Part shown: positions 28,273 through 57,286 of the stretch, in pieces | How the letters are laid out: every line of letters begins with the position of its first letter | Numbering within the stretch: position 1 is the stretch's first letter | Assembly: GCF_027627575.1 (NCBI RefSeq) | Contig: NZ_CP114065.1 | Location: forward strand, 310,001 to 374,000 | Reading direction: 5' to 3' | Source: Kribbella sp. CA-293567 | GTDB taxonomy: Bacteria; Actinomycetota; Actinomycetes; Propionibacteriales; Kribbellaceae | Length of the DNA: 64,000 bases | Translations under genes and position numbers: made by a program | The notes under the pieces: model-generated | What the model was told of the DNA's origin: nothing | The model's database searches: none | The model's input: only the letters and a program-made list of their open reading frames with translations

Positions 28273-28983
28273 GTGACGGAAGACGTTTCACGTGAAACAC
28301 CGCCGCTCGTGGAGGAGCTTTATCCGCGGGCGGCGGACCGGCTTGTGGCGTTCGCCGAGCTGCTGGCTACCGAAGGAACGCTGCGGGGGCTGATCGGCCC
28401 GCGTGAGGTTCCCCGGCTCTGGGATCGGCACCTGCTGAACTGTGCGGTGCTGGAGCGCTTGATCCCCGAGGAATCGACCGTTGCCGACATCGGTACCGGT
28501 GCGGGACTGCCGGGGATCGTGCTCGCTCTCGTCCGGCCTGATCTTCAGGTCGCACTGGTCGAGCCGCTGCTGCGACGTACGACGTTCCTGCAAGAAGCCG
28601 TCGAGCTCCTCGGCTGCACCAATGCCGTGGTGGTTCGTGCCCGTGCTGAGGACCTCATCCCAGGTCGCCGCTCCGCTGCCGAGGGAGCCGCACTAGGCCA
28701 GGCGCCGTACGACGTGGTGGCTTCGCGCGCCGTCGCGCCACTCGGCAAGCTGGCCGGCTGGTGCCTGCCACTGACCGCCGAGGGCGGGCTGATGCTGGCG
28801 ATGAAGGGTGTCTCCGCGGAGGAGGAACTCGCTGCGTCGGAAGACGAACTCGAGGCCCTCGGCGCCGAGGAATGGCACGTCCACCAACTCGGCGTCGAAG
28901 AACTGGCCCAGCCGACGACAGTCGTGAGTATTGTGGCCGGACGTGCTGCGCGGGGATCCCAGCACAGGAGACGCGGGAGGTGA
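28273..28983 (+). CDS. rsmG: 16S rRNA (guanine527-N7) methyltransferase RsmG
   Basis: 236 residues. The SAM-binding motif I is VADIGTGAGLPGIVLA (about residues 70-85), and YDVVASRAVAPLGKLAGW is the conserved motif near the active site. Loss of RsmG causes low-level streptomycin resistance in several bacteria. The GTG at 28273-28275 is chosen because the family N-terminus is present from there; no clear ribosome-binding site. A perfect parS palindrome lies inside codons 5-9 and encodes VSRET. The stop overlaps the parA GTG as GTGA. Confidence 0.93.
   Translation: MTEDVSRETPPLVEELYPRAADRLVAFAELLATEGTLRGLIGPREVPRLWDRHLLNCAVLERLIPEESTVADIGTGAGLPGIVLALVRPDLQVALVEPLLRRTTFLQEAVELLGCTNAVVVRARAEDLIPGRRSAAEGAALGQAPYDVVASRAVAPLGKLAGWCLPLTAEGGLMLAMKGVSAEEELAASEDELEALGAEEWHVHQLGVEELAQPTTVVSIVAGRAARGSQHRRRGR
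28285..28298. promoter_or_regulatory. parS site inside rsmG
   Basis: GTTTCACGTGAAAC, a perfect 14-bp palindrome and canonical parS core, with C before and A after. It is the ParB-binding and nucleation site for chromosome segregation. It lies in the rsmG reading frame and reads V-S-R-E-T. Confidence 0.95.
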
Positions 28984-30917
28984 TCGGGTTGGTGAGTCGT
29001 GCTCTCGGATGGCCTGAGAAAAGTACTGGTGAGCCTCAGGTGTCACAAGGAATCGGCTGGCCGGTGGAAGAGTCCGTCGGCACCGTCCAAGTAGCTTCCG
29101 ACTCCACCTCCGCGGCCGTTGCGGCCGCTGAACCCGCAAGCCTGGATGATCCGGCTGTTGCTGAAGACCTCCCTCCCGCTGCACCTGAGGGTGGAGTTGT
29201 GGATGATGCGGGCAGGGTCGCGTCCGGTACCTCCGCCGTGTCCGATGCGTTTGCCACGTCCGATGCTCCCGCCTCGTCCGATGCGTTTGCCGGGTCCGAT
29301 GCCTCCACCTCGCCCGATGCGTCCGCCGCTTCCGATGCGTCCGCCACTTCCGATGCTCCCGCCTCGTCCGATGGGTCCGGGTCCGTCGCGTTCTCCGCCT
29401 CCGCTGGTGCGGTGCCTTCGGTCGGTGTGCCCGATGAGATCGTCGGTGTGCTCGATGAAGCCGCCGCGCCCGAGGCCACCGCCGATGAAGCGAGGGGCGT
29501 CGAGGCAAGGGCTGCTGCGTCGACCACGGCGGGCGACGTACAGCGCGATCCTGAAGCTTTCGAGCCGGCTACTGCTCCCGTCTCCACCCCTGCGGCTCGC
29601 CCGGAGTCCCCGACCGAGTCTTCCAATCCGATCACGACTGATGGCCCGTTTGAGTCCGGCTTCACCTCCGCTTCGTCGGGTCACTCAGCCCTTCGTGCAG
29701 CCGCCTCGATCGGATTGGACGCAGAGCCGGCAGTCGCCGCCGCAGCACCTGTTTCACGTGAAACCGAAGAGCTCGAAGCGCCCGAGACGCGCGCTTCCAG
29801 CACCCCTGAGGACGAGTTCCCAGAATCGCCCCCACCTGTGGATGACCACCCCCTGATCAGCCCTTCTCAGGCGGGAATTCATCCACAGAGGCCTGTGGAT
29901 AAAGCTGGGGGTAAGCCGGCCCCGACCCCCACCGACATCCTCTTCGGGCCAAGTACCGCATCTATCGGAATGGGCGCTATGACTGCCGCACAGATCGCCG
30001 CGCGGGCTACCTCGGACGAGCTCCAGCGACGCCTCCTCGAACCTCCGATCGCCGCCGCCACCGAACGGACCCTGCTGGTGAATGAAGGACGCACGATGGG
30101 CCGCGAGTTCCCGCTGCCCAAGGAGACCCGGGTCTTCGTGGTCGCCAACCAGAAGGGCGGTGTCGGCAAGACGACGACCACCGTCAACGTCGCTGCCGGC
30201 CTTGCCCTCTACGGCGCGCGCGTCCTGGTCATCGACCTGGACCCTCAGGGCAACGCCTCGACCGCATTGGGCATCGCCCACTCGGAAGGCACTCCGGGTG
30301 TCTATGAAGCAGTCATCGAGGGGGAGCCGCTGAGCAAGCTGCTCGCTCCTTGCGTCGAGCACCCCGGCATCGTGGTAGTTCCGGCCACCATCGACCTGGC
30401 CGGCGCAGAGATCGAGTTGGTCAGCATCGTGGCGCGGGAGAGCCGGTTGAAGAAGGCTCTGGACGCGCACCTGGCCGAGACCGAGGCCGCCGGTGAGAGG
30501 TACGACTACGTCTTCATCGACTGCCCGCCGTCACTCGGCCTGCTGACCGTCAACGCGCTGACCGCCGCCCGCGAGGTACTCGTACCGATCCAGAGCGAGT
30601 ACTACGCGCTCGAGGGACTATCGCAATTGCTGCGGCATATCGACATGGTCAAGTCGCACCTGAATCCAACTCTCGATGTATCGACAATTCTGCTGACCAT
30701 GTACGACGCCCGCACCAAGCTGGCCGGCGAGGTGGCGACCGAGGTGCGCAACCACTTCCAGGACTCGGTGCTGCGGACCGCGGTACCGCGCTCCGTCCGA
30801 ATCTCGGAAGCGCCCAGCCACGGGCAGACGGTGCTTGCCTACGACCCGGCGTCGGCGGGCGCGTTGTCCTACCTGGAGGCTTCGCGCGAGATCGCGATGC
30901 GCAACAACGCTTCCTGA
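28980..30917 (+). CDS. parA: Chromosome-partitioning ATPase ParA with long N-terminal extension
   Basis: 645 residues from a GTG that overlaps the rsmG stop as GTGA, with AGGAG nine bases upstream; a second GTG at 28992 is possible. The first 375 or so residues are an Ala/Ser/Asp/Glu/Pro-rich extension with an eight-copy hexapeptide array (29241-29384) and a parS-coded VSRET. The Walker ATPase follows, with NQKGGVGKTTTTVNVA (about residues 390-405), LVIDLDPQGNASTALG and FIDCPPSLGLLTVNAL. The ATPase binds DNA nonspecifically and moves ParB-parS complexes. Mycobacterial ParA has a shorter extension that also contains VSRET, so the site is likely conserved. Confidence 0.95.
   Translation: MIGLVSRALGWPEKSTGEPQVSQGIGWPVEESVGTVQVASDSTSAAVAAAEPASLDDPAVAEDLPPAAPEGGVVDDAGRVASGTSAVSDAFATSDAPASSDAFAGSDASTSPDASAASDASATSDAPASSDGSGSVAFSASAGAVPSVGVPDEIVGVLDEAAAPEATADEARGVEARAAASTTAGDVQRDPEAFEPATAPVSTPAARPESPTESSNPITTDGPFESGFTSASSGHSALRAAASIGLDAEPAVAAAAPVSRETEELEAPETRASSTPEDEFPESPPPVDDHPLISPSQAGIHPQRPVDKAGGKPAPTPTDILFGPSTASIGMGAMTAAQIAARATSDELQRRLLEPPIAAATERTLLVNEGRTMGREFPLPKETRVFVVANQKGGVGKTTTTVNVAAGLALYGARVLVIDLDPQGNASTALGIAHSEGTPGVYEAVIEGEPLSKLLAPCVEHPGIVVVPATIDLAGAEIELVSIVARESRLKKALDAHLAETEAAGERYDYVFIDCPPSLGLLTVNALTAAREVLVPIQSEYYALEGLSQLLRHIDMVKSHLNPTLDVSTILLTMYDARTKLAGEVATEVRNHFQDSVLRTAVPRSVRISEAPSHGQTVLAYDPASAGALSYLEASREIAMRNNAS
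29241..29384 (+). repeat. Eight 18-bp tandem repeats in the parA extension
   Basis: Eight consecutive 18-base units, each beginning TCCGATG (one CCCGATG), encode the hexapeptide array SDAFAT, SDAPAS, SDAFAG, SDASTS, PDASAA, SDASAT, SDAPAS, SDGSGS. They are in frame and lie in the disordered N-terminal region. Confidence 0.95.
29751..29764. promoter_or_regulatory. parS site inside parA
   Basis: GTTTCACGTGAAAC, identical to the site in rsmG, again in the frame that reads V-S-R-E-T within the ParA extension. Confidence 0.95.
29837..29902. promoter_or_regulatory. Three DnaA-box-like motifs inside parA
   Basis: TGTGGATGA at 29837-29845, TCATCCACA at 29879-29887 and a perfect TGTGGATAA at 29894-29902 lie within 66 bases, all inside the coding sequence of the ParA linker. 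The last two face each other across six bases. Confidence 0.6.
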
Positions 30918-30931
30918 CCTCGCGCTATCAG

Positions 30932-30970
30932 CAGCTCGCCGACACCTGGGTGTCGGCGAGCTGTTTGCTT
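30932..30970 (+). terminator. Strong terminator after parA
   Basis: A perfect 14-bp stem, CAGCTCGCCGACAC with GTGTCGGCGAGCTG, closes a four-base CTGG loop and is followed by TTTGCTT. It separates parA from parB transcription, so parB needs its own promoter inside the parS cluster. Confidence 0.85.
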
Positions 30971-30979
30971 CCCATAGCT

Positions 30980-31115
30980 GTTCCACGTGAAACCACCTCT
31001 GGCGTTCCACGTGAAACCTCGTGGAGGTGAATCGGATGGTCGCGGGAGCGAGTGCCTTCGAGCTCTCGGTTCCACGTGAACCGCGAGAGAGTGTCGTCCT
31101 CGTTCCACGTGAAAC
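30980..31115. promoter_or_regulatory. Cluster of four parS sites upstream of parB
   Basis: GTTCCACGTGAAAC at 30980-30993, 31004-31017 and 31102-31115, and GTTCCACGTGAACC at 31069-31082. All keep the central CACGTG of parS with one changed arm base (GTTTC to GTTCC). ParB binding here probably both nucleates the segregation complex and controls parB expression. Confidence 0.9.
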
Positions 31116-31134
31116 GAGGACGACGCCGGAGGCG

Positions 31135-31143
31135 TTATCCACA
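31135..31143 (+). promoter_or_regulatory. Perfect DnaA box in the parA-parB gap
   Basis: TTATCCACA, exactly the consensus, 20 bases after the last parS site and about 105 bases before the parB start. DnaA binding could link initiation to parB expression; this is inferred from the motif only. Confidence 0.6.
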
Positions 31144-31247
31144 GAACGGGGGACCGGTACTGCGGTCGCCACTCCCGACCAGCTACCGTGGCGCAGTTGC
31201 TGTCGATGAACCTGATCGATCCGAAGTACTGAACTCAAGGAGCGGCG

Positions 31248-32198
31248 ATGAACACACGACTCGGACGTGGACTCGGTGCGCTGATTCCCAGCACGCCAGC
31301 TCCTGGAGCCAGCAACTCGCTGGGCAGCAAGTCGAACTCGATCCCAGGCGCCCCGCCGGTACCGGCCGGGCCCGAACTGACCGCCGTCCCGGGCGCTGAG
31401 TTCGCGGAGATCGACGTCGACAAGATCACGCCGAACCCGAAGCAGCCCCGCAGCGTCTTCGACGAGGACGCGATGGCGGAGCTCGTCCACTCGGTGAAGG
31501 AGATCGGCCTGCTGCAGCCGATCGTCGTCCGTCGGCTGACCGACACGACGTACGAACTGGTGATGGGTGAGCGCCGCTGGCGCGCGACCCAGCAGGCCGG
31601 CCTCACCACGATCCCCGCGATCGTCCGCGACACCGCCGACGACAACCTGCTTCGGGACGCGCTCCTGGAGAACCTGCACCGAAGCCAGCTGAACCCGCTG
31701 GAAGAGGCTGCGGCGTACCAGCAGATGCTCGACGATTTCGGCTGCACCCAGGAAGTACTGGCGAACCGCATCGGCCGCTCGCGCCCCCAGATCTCCAACA
31801 CCCTCCGCCTCCTGAAGCTCCCAGCCTCGGTCCAGCGCCGCGTAGCCGCCGGCGTCCTCTCAGCCGGCCACGCCCGCGCCCTCCTCGGCCTCCCCAGCGG
31901 AGACGCTATCGAGCGCCTCGCGCAACGCATCGTCGCCGAAGGAATGTCGGTCCGCACCGTCGAAGAGATCGTCTCCATGGGCGACATGGACGGCGACGAC
32001 CCAACCCCCGCGCGCCGCCGCAAGAAGCCCGTGGCCCCCCGCCTGGTCGACCTCGCCGACCGCCTCTCCGACCGCTTCGAAACCCGGGTGAAGGTAGACC
32101 TGGGCAAGTCCAAGGGACGCATCACCGTGGAGTTCGCCACCCTCGACGACCTCGAACGAATCGTCACCCTGATGGACCCGAACAAGCAGCAGCAGTAG
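31248..32198 (+). CDS. parB: Chromosome-partitioning protein ParB
   Basis: A 316-residue CTP-dependent DNA clamp that loads at parS. It begins [13 protein letters not shown], the ParA-interacting N-terminus. The CTPase domain (about 55-150) includes [19 protein letters not shown] and [15 protein letters not shown] helix-turn-helix (about 160-210) contains [19 protein letters not shown], and the C-terminal dimerisation domain (about 265-316) ends in a Gln/Lys tail. AAGGAG lies seven bases before the ATG. Separated from parA by a strong terminator and the parS cluster. Confidence 0.97.
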
Positions 32199-32210
32199 GC
32201 CCGATCCTCC

Positions 32211-32248
32211 AACGCCCTGCCCTCATCTGATGATGAAGGCAGGGCGTT
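32211..32248 (+). terminator. Hairpin after parB
   Basis: AACGCCCTGCC and TCATC pair with GATGA and GGCAGGGCGTT around TGAT, a 16-pair stem with one C-A mismatch, followed by CTTCGTT. It probably ends the parB transcript although the U-tract is poor. Confidence 0.75.
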
Positions 32249-32872
32249 CTTCGTTGCCGGCCGCGACCGCTGACCGCTGACCGCTCGAGTCCAACCGCAT
32301 CCGCCGGTGCGTCGGCAGGTCACTGGGCCGAGCCCATACCCATGGAGTTGCTGAGCTCTACGTCCGGCCACACCACAGCTGCACGCTCTGACCTGACGAC
32401 ACAGAAGCCCATCGGTCATACCGGCGTCGACACACGCTCGCCATCAACAATGCGCTTGGCGCTACGGGCAACGATCACAGCACGCTGGCTCGCAGACCTA
32501 TCGACACGTGTACCTCCGTGTCACCGGACCGACGTTCTTCCCACGTTTCCGAGTGCCTGCCACCAGACTCGTGAATGAGCCGTACCGTCGTGCCGCCGAG
32601 CCGCCGGACTCAGTTCGGGTTCCGTGCTCACAACGGATAGAGAAGACAGTCGGCACATCGGAACACCTCAGCGCCTAACGCTCGAAGGCTGTTCGGATCG
32701 GAGGAGCCCGGCCCAGTTCAGTCGCCCAACTACGCGACTCCAGCGATTCGGGCAGATCACCTTCACGCTTGCCAACTTCGCTGGACTTCGTCCGCTTCGA
32801 CACCGAAGCGAGTCCCGCGTAGCAGCCTCAGGGACAGCCTGCTTCGACTGGTGCGCCAAGGATGATTCACTG

Positions 32873-32969
<97 letters not shown>

Positions 32970-34410
32970 TTCAGATGCAGGGCATGGGAGCCAGTGGGGT
33001 AGGCGGCAATCTCCCGGATCTGTGGATCTTGTGGCAGGCGCAGAGGCTCACGGACCCGGTCGGGACGCGGATGGACATGATGTGGCAACGGCTCGAGGAT
33101 GAACTGACCGAGGGTGCCGCCCCACCGGAGCATCGGATGCGGGGCGGCGCTGATGGACCGCGGTTGCATCGCGGGCTCGATGGCAGATGTCGAGAAGTGA
33201 TTCAGCAAGCTGCGGAGCAGCCCAAGCCGGATGCGGCTCCCACCGCCTGGCAGGGTTCAGTTGATCGCGGTCCAGCTCACCGGCCTCCAAAACTGACTCC
33301 CTCGGGGGCACTCGCCGGCCCTTGTCCGATTGCCTGCAACCAACCACCCCCACTGAGATGGGCTCGGACGACTGGGGCAACCTACTCGAGCCAGGCCCTG
33401 GCAGTTCGAAGCCGATGATGTCTTGGGTTTCGTGTGCAGCTGCGCGGAGGATTCGAGGGCGGCGGCTGAGGCGATGCAGCGATGGATTTACGGCGCGAAT
33501 CGACGAGAGTGTGGAGATCGCGAAAGCGGCAAGGCAGGCGGCTACGACGACAGTTGCGGGCTCGGAGTTCGCCGCCGCGCTGTGGTCGGCGGTGCGGCGC
33601 GCGATCCTGGAGGAGGCAGTCCGTCAAAAGCGATGGTTGATGCCGAGGCGGCGCTCAACAAGGTCGGAAGGCGTCAGTCAAAATCGGCACTGGCAAACGT
33701 GTTGAGGATGTGTCGGCTTCTAGGCCGGGTGCTGACGGCGGCTCACAGCAGTACTCACCGGCTTCGGCGTGACTCTTGAAGTTGGTGACCGAATCTGGGG
33801 AGGCGAAGTCGCGGGATCGCCGGGGTGGTCTAGCACCTGCGTCGCCCGGGACTCGTCAGTGGCAAGAGTCCGCCTGCGTCGCGGTCATGCGGAGACACTT
33901 GCACTCCGGTCAGGGAGGCGGATCGTTGCGCCTGGCGCGGGGATGACGGTTGGGCGCGAATCTCGGCAAATTGCCTGTGGTGCGCGGCCGTTGGATGGCG
34001 CGAGAGGAGTGGATGCAGGCGGGACGGAGCCAATTGAGACGCTAGTGCGTGTGGTGACGACGGCCGCGGTACTGATGTCGAGCTCGGTGGCGGATTTAGG
34101 GATAGGGAAGCCGGTTCGGGTTTGCCGCCTGCCTCGGTCTGGCACCTGAGCACTTCGCAAATGGCGGGGTAGCGTGAAGCCGCCGAGCATGCAATCCGTG
34201 TAAAGACACTCGACCTCCGCACAGAGGCAGACAGTGCGCCGACGGTCGCGGGTGGCAAGCCGTGTCGGGGTCGAAAATCGGTGAAGGCGCTGGCTTGAGG
34301 TGGTGTCGGCGCGGCGTGGTGCCGGTGGGCACGGTGCGACCTACGTTCGGCGATTGATGTGGGGGGCGGCGAGTCGGGTTGATGGCTGTGCCACCCCCGC
34401 GGTTCGCCGA

Positions 34411-34464
34411 CGACTGCCTGCGCGCGGTGTCGATGAACGACTGCCCGCTCGCGGTGTCGATGAA
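34411..34464. repeat. 27-bp imperfect tandem duplication
   Basis: Two adjacent 27-base copies (34411-34437 and 34438-34464) start CGACTGCC and end GCGGTGTCGATGAA and differ at two positions. Confidence 0.9.
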
Positions 34465-35181
34465 CCAGTTCGTCCGCAGAACTTCGCGTTGGATCGTCTG
34501 GGTGAGGTCGTGACCGGTGAGAGGTGTGGTGAGCTCGACCTGTTTGGCTCCAACGGCCCGCGCTGATCGAGGCGATGGAGTGCCGTCGGTGCGAACGAGC
34601 GGGTGAGCAGGAACCGTCGACGGGTCGAGGCGGTCGGCTTGGGCCGAGCGCTGGGGAGCTGTGCTCTTCGTGGCGACGGCTCGGGGCGTTGTGCCGACCA
34701 CGCCGAGGTGGCCAGAAGTTCTGTGTGCGGCATTCTGCGGGAGCTGGCCGGCTCGCCCTTGTCGCGCGATTTGGGGGACTCGGGGGAGATCGATCGGCGA
34801 AGCGGTTGGCGTTCATGAGGTCCATCGCTTGATGCCAGGGAGTGCGACACGTCCCGGGCAAGTCCGCTGAGCTGGCGCCGGGCGGCTCTTACAAGGCATC
34901 GCGGTATGGCCGGTTCACCGACGTTCGGTCGAACGCATGTCGAGGTCTGAGCCAGGGTGAGTGCTCGACGACTCGTTTGGGTTCTGTCAGAGCGATTCTG
35001 CGGGACTTTGGCCTTGGACCGCTGTGGCGTCTTGTCAGCGACGGACTTCTGGTGGCGGCTCGGATTCAGGGGACTTTGAGCGGTTCGGGGCGATTTCACG
35101 CACGAACCCAGTCTGCGGTAGCGCTCAGAACCTACGGTCGCGATTTGTCGATATAACTACTTGGCGACCTATCGGCCGCGA

Positions 35182-35197
35182 TGTTTCATGTGAAACA
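35182..35197. promoter_or_regulatory. parS-like site in the gene-poor interval
   Basis: TGTTTCATGTGAAACA differs from the canonical parS TGTTTCACGTGAAACA by one central base (C to T). Flanking CGA and TCG extend the dyad to 22 bases. It lies about 100 bases before the DUF3817 stop, 4 kb from the parB cluster. Confidence 0.75.
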
Positions 35198-55108: not shown

Positions 55109-55118
55109 AATGTCGACT

Positions 55119-55132
55119 GTTTCACGTGCAAC
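55119..55132. promoter_or_regulatory. Degenerate parS site after pcnB
   Basis: GTTTCACGTGCAAC matches parS (GTTTCACGTGAAAC) except for one base in the right arm. It lies 24 kb from parB in a short intergenic gap, where a weak ParB site is plausible. Confidence 0.55.
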
Positions 55133-55190
55133 GGTGACGGTAGCGGTGACGGGGAACAGTCCACCCTCCCTGCTGGTCTAGTCTCGCCGC

Positions 55191-55820
55191 GTGGACCTCT
55201 TGAGCATCATCGGGTGGGGCGGATCGGCGCTCGTTGTCGTGTCGTTGCTGCAGACCCGGATCCTGCGGCTGCGGGTACTGAACCTGATCGGCTGCGTGAT
55301 CCTGGTCGGCTTCAACCTGGCCATTCCGGTCTGGCCGATGGTCGGAATGAACGCCGTCCTCGCGGTGATCAACGTCGTCCACCTGTGGCGACTGCTCCGG
55401 CACCGCCACGACGACCTCGAGTACGCCGTCCTGGAAGTCGACAGCTCCGACGCGTACCTCGGTCACGTGCTGACCGCGCACCGCAGCGACATCGCCAAGT
55501 TCAACCCCGGCTTCACCACCGCCACCAGCCCGTACGCGTTCCTGGTCCAGCGCGGAGAGCGCACCGTCGGCGTGGTCCTGGCCCACGACGCCGGCTCCGG
55601 CCGAGCCCAGATCGACCTCGACTACGTGCTGCCGAAGTACCGCGACTTCACCCCCGGCGAGTTCGTCTACCGCCGCAGCGACGTCTTCACCGGCCACGGC
55701 TTCCACCAGGTGCTGGCCCCGCCGCGGATGCGCGACTCGGCCAACTACCTGAAGAAGCTCGGCTTCCACCGCGAGGGCGACAGCCTGGTGATGGACCTCC
55801 CGAATGACCCAAAGTTGTAG
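55191..55820 (+). CDS. Membrane protein with GNAT-like C-terminus
   Basis: 209 residues. The N-terminus carries about three helices (residues 2-70, IIGWGGSALVVVSLL, LNLIGCVILVGFNLAI and VGMNAVLAVINVVHLW), a YgjV-like arrangement. The C-terminus (about 95-205) is soluble and ends like a GNAT fold (DSANYLKKLGFHREGD). I cannot assign a function. A TAGTCT -10 element at 55179-55184 ends six bases before the GTG, suggesting a leaderless transcript. Its stop lies in the inverted repeat ahead of the ATPase gene. Confidence 0.75.
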   Translation: MDLLSIIGWGGSALVVVSLLQTRILRLRVLNLIGCVILVGFNLAIPVWPMVGMNAVLAVINVVHLWRLLRHRHDDLEYAVLEVDSSDAYLGHVLTAHRSDIAKFNPGFTTATSPYAFLVQRGERTVGVVLAHDAGSGRAQIDLDYVLPKYRDFTPGEFVYRRSDVFTGHGFHQVLAPPRMRDSANYLKKLGFHREGDSLVMDLPNDPKL

Positions 55821-55850
55821 AACTATATTTATTATAAGTATAGTTCTACA
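55815..55850. promoter_or_regulatory. AT-rich palindromic promoter-operator
   Basis: TGTAGAACTATA (55816-55827) and its exact reverse complement TATAGTTCTACA (55839-55850) are separated by 11 A/T-rich bases. TTGTAG (55815-55820) and TATAGT (55839-55844), spaced by 18, form a promoter within it, and the ATG follows at 55853. A DNA-binding dimer would cover the whole promoter. Confidence 0.75.
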
Positions 55851-55852
55851 TC

Positions 55853-57286
55853 ATGAGAAAGCCTGAGCGGATCTTCGCCCGCGACCAGGAATGGGCCCAC
55901 CTGACCAGATTCGCCGACGTGAAGGCGGACCGCCCTCAGCTCGGTGTGATCAGTGGCAGGCGAAGGCAGGGAAAGACGTACCTCGTGGAGGGGCTCGCCG
56001 AGCAAACCGGCGGTCTGTACTTCGGCGCGACCCAGGCGACCGAGACCGAGTCGCTGGCGCAGTTCGCCGCGGCGATCGCCGCTCACCTCGACTCACCGGT
56101 GCCGCCCCGCTTCGACAGCTGGGACGACGCCGTCCGCTTCTTCTTCTCGATCGATGCCCCCGGACCGTTCGTCATCGACGAGTTTCCCTACCTGAGTCAG
56201 GTCTCCCCGGTACTGCCATCGATTCTGCAGCGGGAGATCGACCGGGCAACGTCCGCCGGCCGGCGGACCAAGGTCCTGTTGTGTGGCTCGGCCATGTCGG
56301 TGATGGGCGGCCTACTGTCCGGCACCGCTCCTTTGCGGGGGCGGGCGACACTCGAACTGGTGGTCCGGCCCTTCGACTACCTGCTGGCGGCCCAGTACTG
56401 GGGAGTTGAGGATCCGGGGCTCGCCGCCCTGCTGCACTCCGTGGTCGGAGGCACACCGGCGTACCGGCGGTTCGTCAATGACGACGCTCCGGAGTCGCTC
56501 GAGGACTTCGACGACTGGGTACTGCGTACCGTGCTCAGCCCGGCAAGCCCGCTGTTTCGGGAGGCTCGCTATCTCCTCGAGGAGGAGATGGATGTCCGGG
56601 ACAGCGCGCTGTACCACTCGGTGCTCGCGGCGGTGGCTTCCGGCAACCGGACGAGAGGCGGGATCGCCAACTACGTCGGCCGCAAGGCGACCGACATCGG
56701 TCACCAACTGAACGTCCTGGAAGACAGCGGTCTGTTGAGACGCCGGCCGGACCTCTTCAGGTCAGGACGCTCCGGTTACGAGGTCGCCGAGCCGCTGATC
56801 GTGTTCTACCAAGTGGTGATGCGCCCGCAGTGGGGCCTGCTCGAAAGCGGCCGGTCCGCCACCGTGTGGGAGGCGGCGCGTCCGCGCTTCTCGTCGCAGG
56901 TCGTGGGCCCGCACTTCGAGCAGCTCTGTCGGGAGTACGCGATGTCCGCGCCGGCCGAGCGGTTCGGTGAACTGCCGGGGGAGATCGGCTCGGGGGTAGT
57001 GCCGGATCACTACAACCGAAGCCAGATCGAGGTGGATGTCGCCGTTCTGGCGCCCGCGGTCAGTGGCCACAAGCGCAAGGTCTTGTCGCTGGGCGAGGCG
57101 AAGTGGGGTGAGGTGATGGGTCGGCGGCATGTCAGCCGGCTGGAGCGAGCGCGGCATCTGCTGTCTCGCGACTACGACACCTCGGAGACTGTGCTCGCCT
57201 GCTACAGCGGAGCCGGCTTCGAGCCTGGGCTTGACTCCAGTGTTCTGACAGTGGGGCTCGATGACCTCTATCGGCGGGCGAACTAG
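55853..57286 (+). CDS. AAA ATPase with DUF234 / PD-(D/E)XK-like C-terminus
   Basis: 477 residues. The N-terminal archaeal-type ATPase_2 domain has Walker A GRRRQGKT (about 35-42) and Walker B FVIDEFPY (about 104-111), followed by a helical lid (PLRGRATLELVVRPF) and a winged-helix region (about 285-320, ATDIGHQLNVLEDSGLL). The C-terminal DUF234-like domain (about 370-470) carries IEVDVAV and LGEAKWG, the D...ExK spacing of PD-(D/E)XK nucleases. Related proteins occur mainly in archaea and some bacteria, without a settled role. The ATG seems leaderless, and its stop overlaps the convergent GNAT gene by four bases. Confidence 0.88.
   Translation: MRKPERIFARDQEWAHLTRFADVKADRPQLGVISGRRRQGKTYLVEGLAEQTGGLYFGATQATETESLAQFAAAIAAHLDSPVPPRFDSWDDAVRFFFSIDAPGPFVIDEFPYLSQVSPVLPSILQREIDRATSAGRRTKVLLCGSAMSVMGGLLSGTAPLRGRATLELVVRPFDYLLAAQYWGVEDPGLAALLHSVVGGTPAYRRFVNDDAPESLEDFDDWVLRTVLSPASPLFREARYLLEEEMDVRDSALYHSVLAAVASGNRTRGGIANYVGRKATDIGHQLNVLEDSGLLRRRPDLFRSGRSGYEVAEPLIVFYQVVMRPQWGLLESGRSATVWEAARPRFSSQVVGPHFEQLCREYAMSAPAERFGELPGEIGSGVVPDHYNRSQIEVDVAVLAPAVSGHKRKVLSLGEAKWGEVMGRRHVSRLERARHLLSRDYDTSETVLACYSGAGFEPGLDSSVLTVGLDDLYRRAN

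What the first reader, a model, noticed from the sequence alone, without database searches (positions are those of the whole stretch)
55815..57286. AT-rich palindrome controlling an ATPase with nuclease-like C-terminus
A 12-bp perfect inverted repeat, over 75% A+T in a high-GC genome, contains both -35 and -10 and ends two bases before the start codon. The gene encodes an archaeal-type AAA ATPase with a helix-turn-helix and a D...ExK-type DUF234 domain. A solitary, tightly repressible, possibly transferred ATPase/nuclease is a candidate defence or mobile-element-like system.
Basis: partly seen in the sequence, partly recalled or inferred. Interest (0 to 1): 0.6.

Follow-up and report, generated by a model that had tools for sequence, protein, structure and literature searches.

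The report
Defence-candidate nuclease with private operator
A stand-alone ATPase–nuclease gene of a family suspected, but not yet proven, to defend bacteria against viruses carries its own unique DNA control site at its start, and relatives across bacteria do much the same, which suggests the protein switches off its own gene until it is needed.

Summary
A 35-bp A+T-rich dyad (55816-55850) ends two bases before the ATG of a 477-aa ATPase gene and occurs once in the 7.6-Mb genome. The protein has a Walker ATPase, a winged helix and a PD-(D/E)XK-like C-terminus (E356, D395, E415-x-K417), predicted at pLDDT 96. It belongs to PADLOC candidate family PDC-S27. The genome is Kribbella.

The dyad is not a local curiosity. 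In this subfamily it is two quasi-palindromic 14-bp units (AGAAGTATAGTTCT) set 15 bp apart. In 38 Kribbella genomes it lies upstream of all 15 subfamily genes, with no off-target site except three orphan copies where the gene is absent. A second subfamily has its own dyad (GATAGTATC-N6-GATACTATC), in 5 of 5 cases beside its genes. Dyads also sit at the starts of many bacterial homologues on plasmids of other phyla, but not in six haloarchaeal ones.

Most likely: a one-gene, autorepressed ATPase-nuclease that binds its own operator through its winged helix (inferred). The 'recent transfer' reading is not supported: G+C is ordinary, and the gene is mostly inherited vertically at one locus with repeated loss. 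Defence function and nuclease activity are untested.

The parts
55816..55850 (.). Operator dyad, 35 bp, 80% A+T, 17-nt arms around one central base
55819..55832 (.). Operator unit 1 (AGAACTATATTTAT), 14-bp quasi-palindrome
   Evidence: unit/PWM analysis
55834..55847 (.). Operator unit 2 (ATAAGTATAGTTCT), 15 bp from unit 1
55853..57286 (+). PDC-S27-type ATPase / winged-helix / PD-(D/E)XK protein, 477 aa plus stop
55953..56371 (+). ATPase core: Walker A G35-K41, Walker B D109-E110, G145-S146, R164 (residues about 34-173)
   Evidence: alignment and model
56600..56788 (+). Winged helix-turn-helix (residues about 250-312), proposed operator-binding domain
   Evidence: model secondary structure, MarR/ArsR-type matches
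56789..57283 (+). PD-(D/E)XK-like C-terminal domain (residues 313-477; E356, D395, E415, K417)

Best explanation
A solitary, autoregulated ATPase-nuclease of the PDC-S27 family. The protein has a STAND/ORC-like layout (nucleotide-binding domain, helical domain, winged helix) fused to a PD-(D/E)XK domain. As a dimer or higher oligomer it binds, through its winged helix, the two-unit 29-bp operator that covers its own core promoter and reaches the start codon, and so keeps its own expression low. Activation, perhaps by an invading nucleic acid or phage product acting on the ATPase, would release the operator, raise expression and license DNA cleavage. Shown here: the dyad, its conservation and its one-gene specificity; the domain architecture; conservation of catalytic residues in this subfamily; vertical descent with losses. 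Inferred: that the protein itself binds the operator, that binding represses, that the nuclease is active, and that the role is antiviral.
For: Dyads of high symmetry sit at the starts of about 97 homologue genes far more often than at control genes (score >=8: 58% vs 19%; A+T-rich and >=8: 54% vs 5%; Mann-Whitney p=1e-8). A fixed-spacing 29-bp PWM, leave-one-out, scores 16-43 bits in 28 subfamily-A genes; the 99.9th percentile of 2,613 control windows is 8.5 bits. In 57 further genes not used to build it, 47% have PWM >10 bits and 65% have either a PWM hit or a significant palindrome. In 38 genomes the motif finds all 15 subfamily-A genes and nothing else but orphan sites at the same locus, although the reversed control pattern hits 10 times by chance. 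A second subfamily has a different dyad in 5 of 5 cases beside its own genes. The aligned proteins share a winged-helix segment, and the family profile matches MarR/ArsR DNA binders; no regulator gene was seen to be shared by the loci inspected. The dyad is complementary right up to the central base (24 of 26 pairs at offset 1), which an RNA hairpin loop could not use. 59 of 60 homologues match PDC-S27.
Against: No binding data. Within subfamily A, operator divergence tracks winged-helix divergence only weakly once the rest of the protein is accounted for (partial r 0.16). Winged helices of STAND proteins often do not bind DNA. The transcribed dyad would also fold as RNA (-18 kcal/mol, z -4.2), and sense-strand G-T mismatches exceed A-C ones (27 vs 11), so an RNA role is not excluded. 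Six haloarchaeal homologues and about a third of the test set show no detectable dyad. The catalytic Glu is Ser in about 20% of the family. Orphan operators persist in three genomes without the gene.
Confidence: 0.68

Rival explanations
1. The dyad is an operator, but for a separate host-encoded regulator, as BrxR, CapW and RptR control other defence systems.
For: Separate regulators with palindromic or repeated operators are the known pattern for defence genes (PMC9122601, PMC9122588, PMC12255303).
Against: The motif occurs only beside these genes in 38 genomes, each subfamily has its own motif, and no regulator gene was seen next to the window's copy, whereas the protein has its own winged helix.
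Confidence: 0.15
2. The dyad acts as RNA: a hairpin in the 5' end of the mRNA that limits translation or is the protein's RNA target.
For: Strong hairpin in silico; modest excess of G-U-compatible mismatches on the sense strand (27 vs 11).
Against: Symmetry runs through the central bases, half-unit spacing is fixed, and the centre is sequence-conserved. In Kribbella the site ends 2 nt before the ATG and seems to contain the promoter, so much of it may not be transcribed. G-T over A-C bias may only reflect strand-biased deamination.
Confidence: 0.1
3. Gene and palindrome form a mobile element or replication/partition module: the dyad is a target or origin-like site, and the ORC/TnsC-like ATPase acts in mobility.
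For: Profile and fold relatives include ORC/Cdc6, TnsC and MuB. Homologues are common on plasmids, some near integrases or recombinases, ParA/ParB or ParM. Orphan dyads occur at the locus.
Against: No second copy of the dyad downstream of the gene and no repeats bounding a unit. Kribbella copies share one locus with near-congruent trees. One site per gene, exactly two units, no iteron arrays.
Confidence: 0.05
4. Chance or ordinary palindrome, such as a terminator between convergent genes.
For: Orphan dyads lie between two convergent genes in three genomes.
Against: Statistics and specificity above; many gene-less sites have no dyad and the neighbours abut; the same motif lies upstream of homologues at unrelated loci.
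Confidence: 0.02

Closest known systems
PDC-S27 (PADLOC putative/phage defence candidate)
   Same: Profile match 3e-19 for this protein and 59 of 60 homologues; ATPase fused to PD-(D/E)XK; single gene (PMC12988326).
   Different: PDC-S27 has no experimental validation that I could find. The survey passages read do not mention a dedicated operator; this copy lies among housekeeping genes, not in a defence island.
Archaeal ATPases PABY2304 (2qen) and SSO1545 (2fna), ATPase_2 clan
   Same: Best profile and fold matches for the ATPase/winged-helix part.
   Different: About 15% identity; these chains are about 350 residues and align to the ATPase/winged-helix part.
STAND / ORC-Cdc6 ATPases (NLRs, Apaf-1, Orc1/Cdc6)
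   Same: Nucleotide-binding domain, helical domain and winged helix in the same order.
   Different: No repeat sensor domain; C-terminal nuclease-like domain instead.
BrxR / CapW / RptR regulators of defence operons
   Same: Palindromic or repeated operator over the promoter of a defence gene (PMC9122601, PMC9122588, PMC12255303).
   Different: Those are separate small regulators; here the putative regulator and the effector are one polypeptide.

Membership tests
PDC-S27 | Match to PADLOC PDC-S27 profiles | tested here: met
   E 3.4e-19 and 5.1e-16; 59/60 homologues
PDC-S27 | ATPase fused to a PD-(D/E)XK domain | tested here: met
   Conserved Walker A/B, E356, D395, E415-x-K417; C-terminal model resembles BbvCI, MspJI, AF1548, NucS/EndoMS, Can2 (best E 1e-3, so moderate)
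PDC-S27 | Single-gene system | tested here: met
   Solitary here; neighbours are a core gene present in 38/38 genomes and a GNAT gene
PDC-S27 | Location in or near defence loci (a common trait, not stated as a requirement) | tested here: inconclusive
   The Kribbella locus lies by pcnA/murJ-type housekeeping genes; one relative lies beside csm5; neighbours of other relatives were not surveyed for defence genes
PDC-S27 | Antiphage activity | not testable with these tools
   needs infection assays
Pfam DUF234 (PF03008) | Score above the curated cut-off | tested here: not met
   16.1 bits vs 22.5 for this protein; 28 of 60 homologues match at E<=1e-3
Pfam ATPase_2 (PF01637) | Score above the curated cut-off | tested here: not met
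   23.1 bits vs 33.2; 52 of 60 homologues match at E<=1e-3
STAND NTPases | NBD-helical-winged-helix core | tested here: met
   Foldseek to Apaf-1 and NLR resistosomes, E about 1e-6
STAND NTPases | C-terminal superstructure-forming repeats as sensor | tested here: not met
   C-terminus is a PD-(D/E)XK-like domain
Self-repressed genes (operator bound by own product) | Direct binding of own operator | not tested
   inferred from specificity only

The most novel reading that the evidence does not exclude
PDC-S27 proteins are one-polypeptide immune switches: the winged helix holds the protein on its own gene's operator as both repressor and inactive nuclease, and a trigger sensed by the ATPase frees it, so that derepression and nuclease activation happen together. 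Each subfamily has co-evolved a private operator, making the operator a generic marker for this defence family across bacteria.
Probability: 0.3. Interest if true: 0.75.

Novelty: new variant of a known kind. Interest (0 to 1): 0.6.

Why it matters
PDC-S27 is one of the most frequent unvalidated defence candidates: thousands of copies in archaea and bacteria, counted in PMC12988326. How single-gene nucleases are kept silent is an open question. A dedicated, family-wide operator at the gene start gives an immediate, cheap test (gel shift and reporter) of whether the effector is its own repressor, and a handle for finding the inducing signal.

Tried and rejected
Phage decoys: the subfamily-A core motif has no match in 2.9 million viral contigs; four contigs with the subfamily-B pattern carry no homologue and look like chance matches in A+T-rich phages. 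Phage-borne relatives of this protein: none in viral contigs; five weak matches in unannotated faecal contigs. Mobile-element ends: no matching dyad downstream of the genes. Larger regulon: no other sites in the genus. Fine-scale operator/winged-helix co-evolution: inconclusive. Literature: no paper found linking this family to palindromes.

Full report
WHAT IS THERE. At 55816-55850 lies TGTAGAACTATATTTAT-T-ATAAGTATAGTTCTACA, an inverted repeat with 17-nt arms (one mismatch) around one base. It is the most A+T-rich 35-mer of the window, it ends two bases before the ATG of the gene at 55853-57286, and it is unique in the 7.6-Mb genome. Close homologues in named records belong to Kribbella.

THE PROTEIN. 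Single-sequence Pfam scores are below the curated cut-offs. PADLOC names it PDC-S27 (3e-19), as it does 59 of 60 homologues. An alignment-guided AlphaFold2 model has mean pLDDT 96. Its N-terminal part resembles archaeal ATPases 2qen and 2fna, ORC/Cdc6, and the core of NLRs and Apaf-1; the middle contains a winged helix with weak MarR/ArsR-type similarity. The C-terminal domain, modelled apart (pLDDT 96), resembles PD-(D/E)XK enzymes (BbvCI, MspJI, AF1548, EndoMS, Can2), best E 1e-3. Walker A G35-K41, D109-E110, R164, E356, D395 and K417 are nearly invariant; E415 is Glu in 78% and Ser in about 20% of the family. In the window's protein all are present.

THE DYAD IS A FAMILY FEATURE. Reading upstream of the relatives showed palindromes beside many of them, even at 25-30% identity. 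In about 97 homologue starts, dyads of score >=8 are present in 58% against 19% of 136 other genes in the same loci; A+T-rich ones in 54% against 5% (p=1e-8). Among 14 bacterial homologues outside Actinomycetota (12 on plasmids of Rhodothermus, Mesorhizobium, Protochlamydia, Cetobacterium, Pseudoalteromonas, Bacteroides and others, two on faecal contigs filed as phage), 57% are significant by shuffling against 16% of control genes in those plasmids; six haloarchaeal ones show nothing.

ANATOMY OF THE OPERATOR. In subfamily A the dyad is two 14-bp quasi-palindromic units, consensus AGAAGTATAGTTCT, 15 bp apart. A fixed-spacing 29-bp PWM scored leave-one-out gives 16-43 bits in 28 genes against a control 99.9th percentile of 8.5 bits; close relatives stay in the training set there. 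In 0.92 Mb of loci, high scores fall almost only at gene starts and three orphan sites. In 57 further genes from other Actinomycetes, not used to build the PWM, 47% exceed 10 bits and 65% have a PWM hit or a significant palindrome. In 55 genes with a pair of units, no third unit was seen (the 15-bp spacing is imposed by that search, and its support comes from the PWM hits in genes not used to build it). Paired positions vary in a symmetric way (T-A, G-C, C-G, A-T at offsets 13-17; rows were chosen partly for symmetry, so this is supportive only). Some Kribbella copies keep the two units but have poor overall symmetry.

SPECIFICITY. Across 38 Kribbella genomes the motif with up to three mismatches hits all 15 subfamily-A genes and two orphan sites, and nothing else, while the reversed control pattern gives 10 hits. 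A third orphan is seen with another pattern. Subfamily B has GATAGTATC-N6-GATACTATC: five sites in 38 genomes, each directly upstream of a subfamily-B gene (gene places). One gene, one private operator: this argues against a global regulator or a regulon.

INHERITANCE. The left neighbour is present in 38 of 38 genomes. The ATPase sits beside it in 11; most of the others that were read have an empty site where the left gene abuts the next one. Trees of the ATPase and of the neighbour agree in their main clades, with some local conflict, and occupied sites are scattered over the neighbour tree. The simplest reading is an old acquisition or ancestral presence with repeated loss. G+C is that of the surroundings. 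Three genomes (loci L128, L130, L149) keep an orphan dyad with symmetric arms at the same spot; I cannot fully explain this.

MECHANISM. The most economical model is autorepression by the protein's own winged helix. Shown: conserved, gene-specific dyads and a shared winged-helix segment. Inferred: binding, repression, nuclease activity, antiviral role. Against an RNA hairpin: symmetry continues through the central bases and the centre is conserved; for it: a stable predicted hairpin and 27 G-T against 11 A-C mismatches, which strand-biased mutation could also give. Fine-scale co-variation of operator and winged helix is inconclusive.

KNOWN CONTEXT. PDC-S27 is described as an ATPase fused to PD-(D/E)XK, abundant in archaea and bacteria and not validated (PMC12988326). 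Regulators of other defence systems (BrxR, CapW, RptR) bind palindromic or repeated sites but are separate proteins. No paper in the held library links this family to a palindromic operator; subscription papers and preprints were not searchable.

VERDICT. The gene is a member of a known candidate family; the private two-unit operator and the one-polypeptide repressor-effector model are the new part.

Noticed in passing
L128, L130, L149 (Kribbella relatives), same intergenic site as the window's 55816-55850: Orphan dyads of the same motif without the ATPase gene, with good or even longer symmetric arms (e.g. CAAAGTTGTAGAAGTACA...TGTACTTCTACAACTTTG); relic of gene loss or independent function.
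   Followed up: partly
window 28284-35197 and 55118-55133: Seven parS-like sites (TGTTTCACGTGAAACA, up to 3 mismatches; chance 0.02), so the window probably lies near the replication origin.
   Followed up: partly
L099 (Rhodothermus marinus pRMAR01): A homologue with its own dyad lies beside the type III-A CRISPR gene csm5.
   Followed up: no
L052 (Acrocarpospora corrugata): Two PDC-S27-type genes in one 11-kb locus, each with its own dyad.
   Followed up: no
G814, G733, G787, G946: Some Actinomycetes carry about four PDC-S27 paralogues with differing upstream motifs, useful for testing cross-talk.
   Followed up: partly
L132 (Kribbella relative), same intergenic site: A different, G+C-richer repeat-rich palindrome (TTTGGTGGGTTCACCCACC...) fills the empty site.
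   Followed up: no
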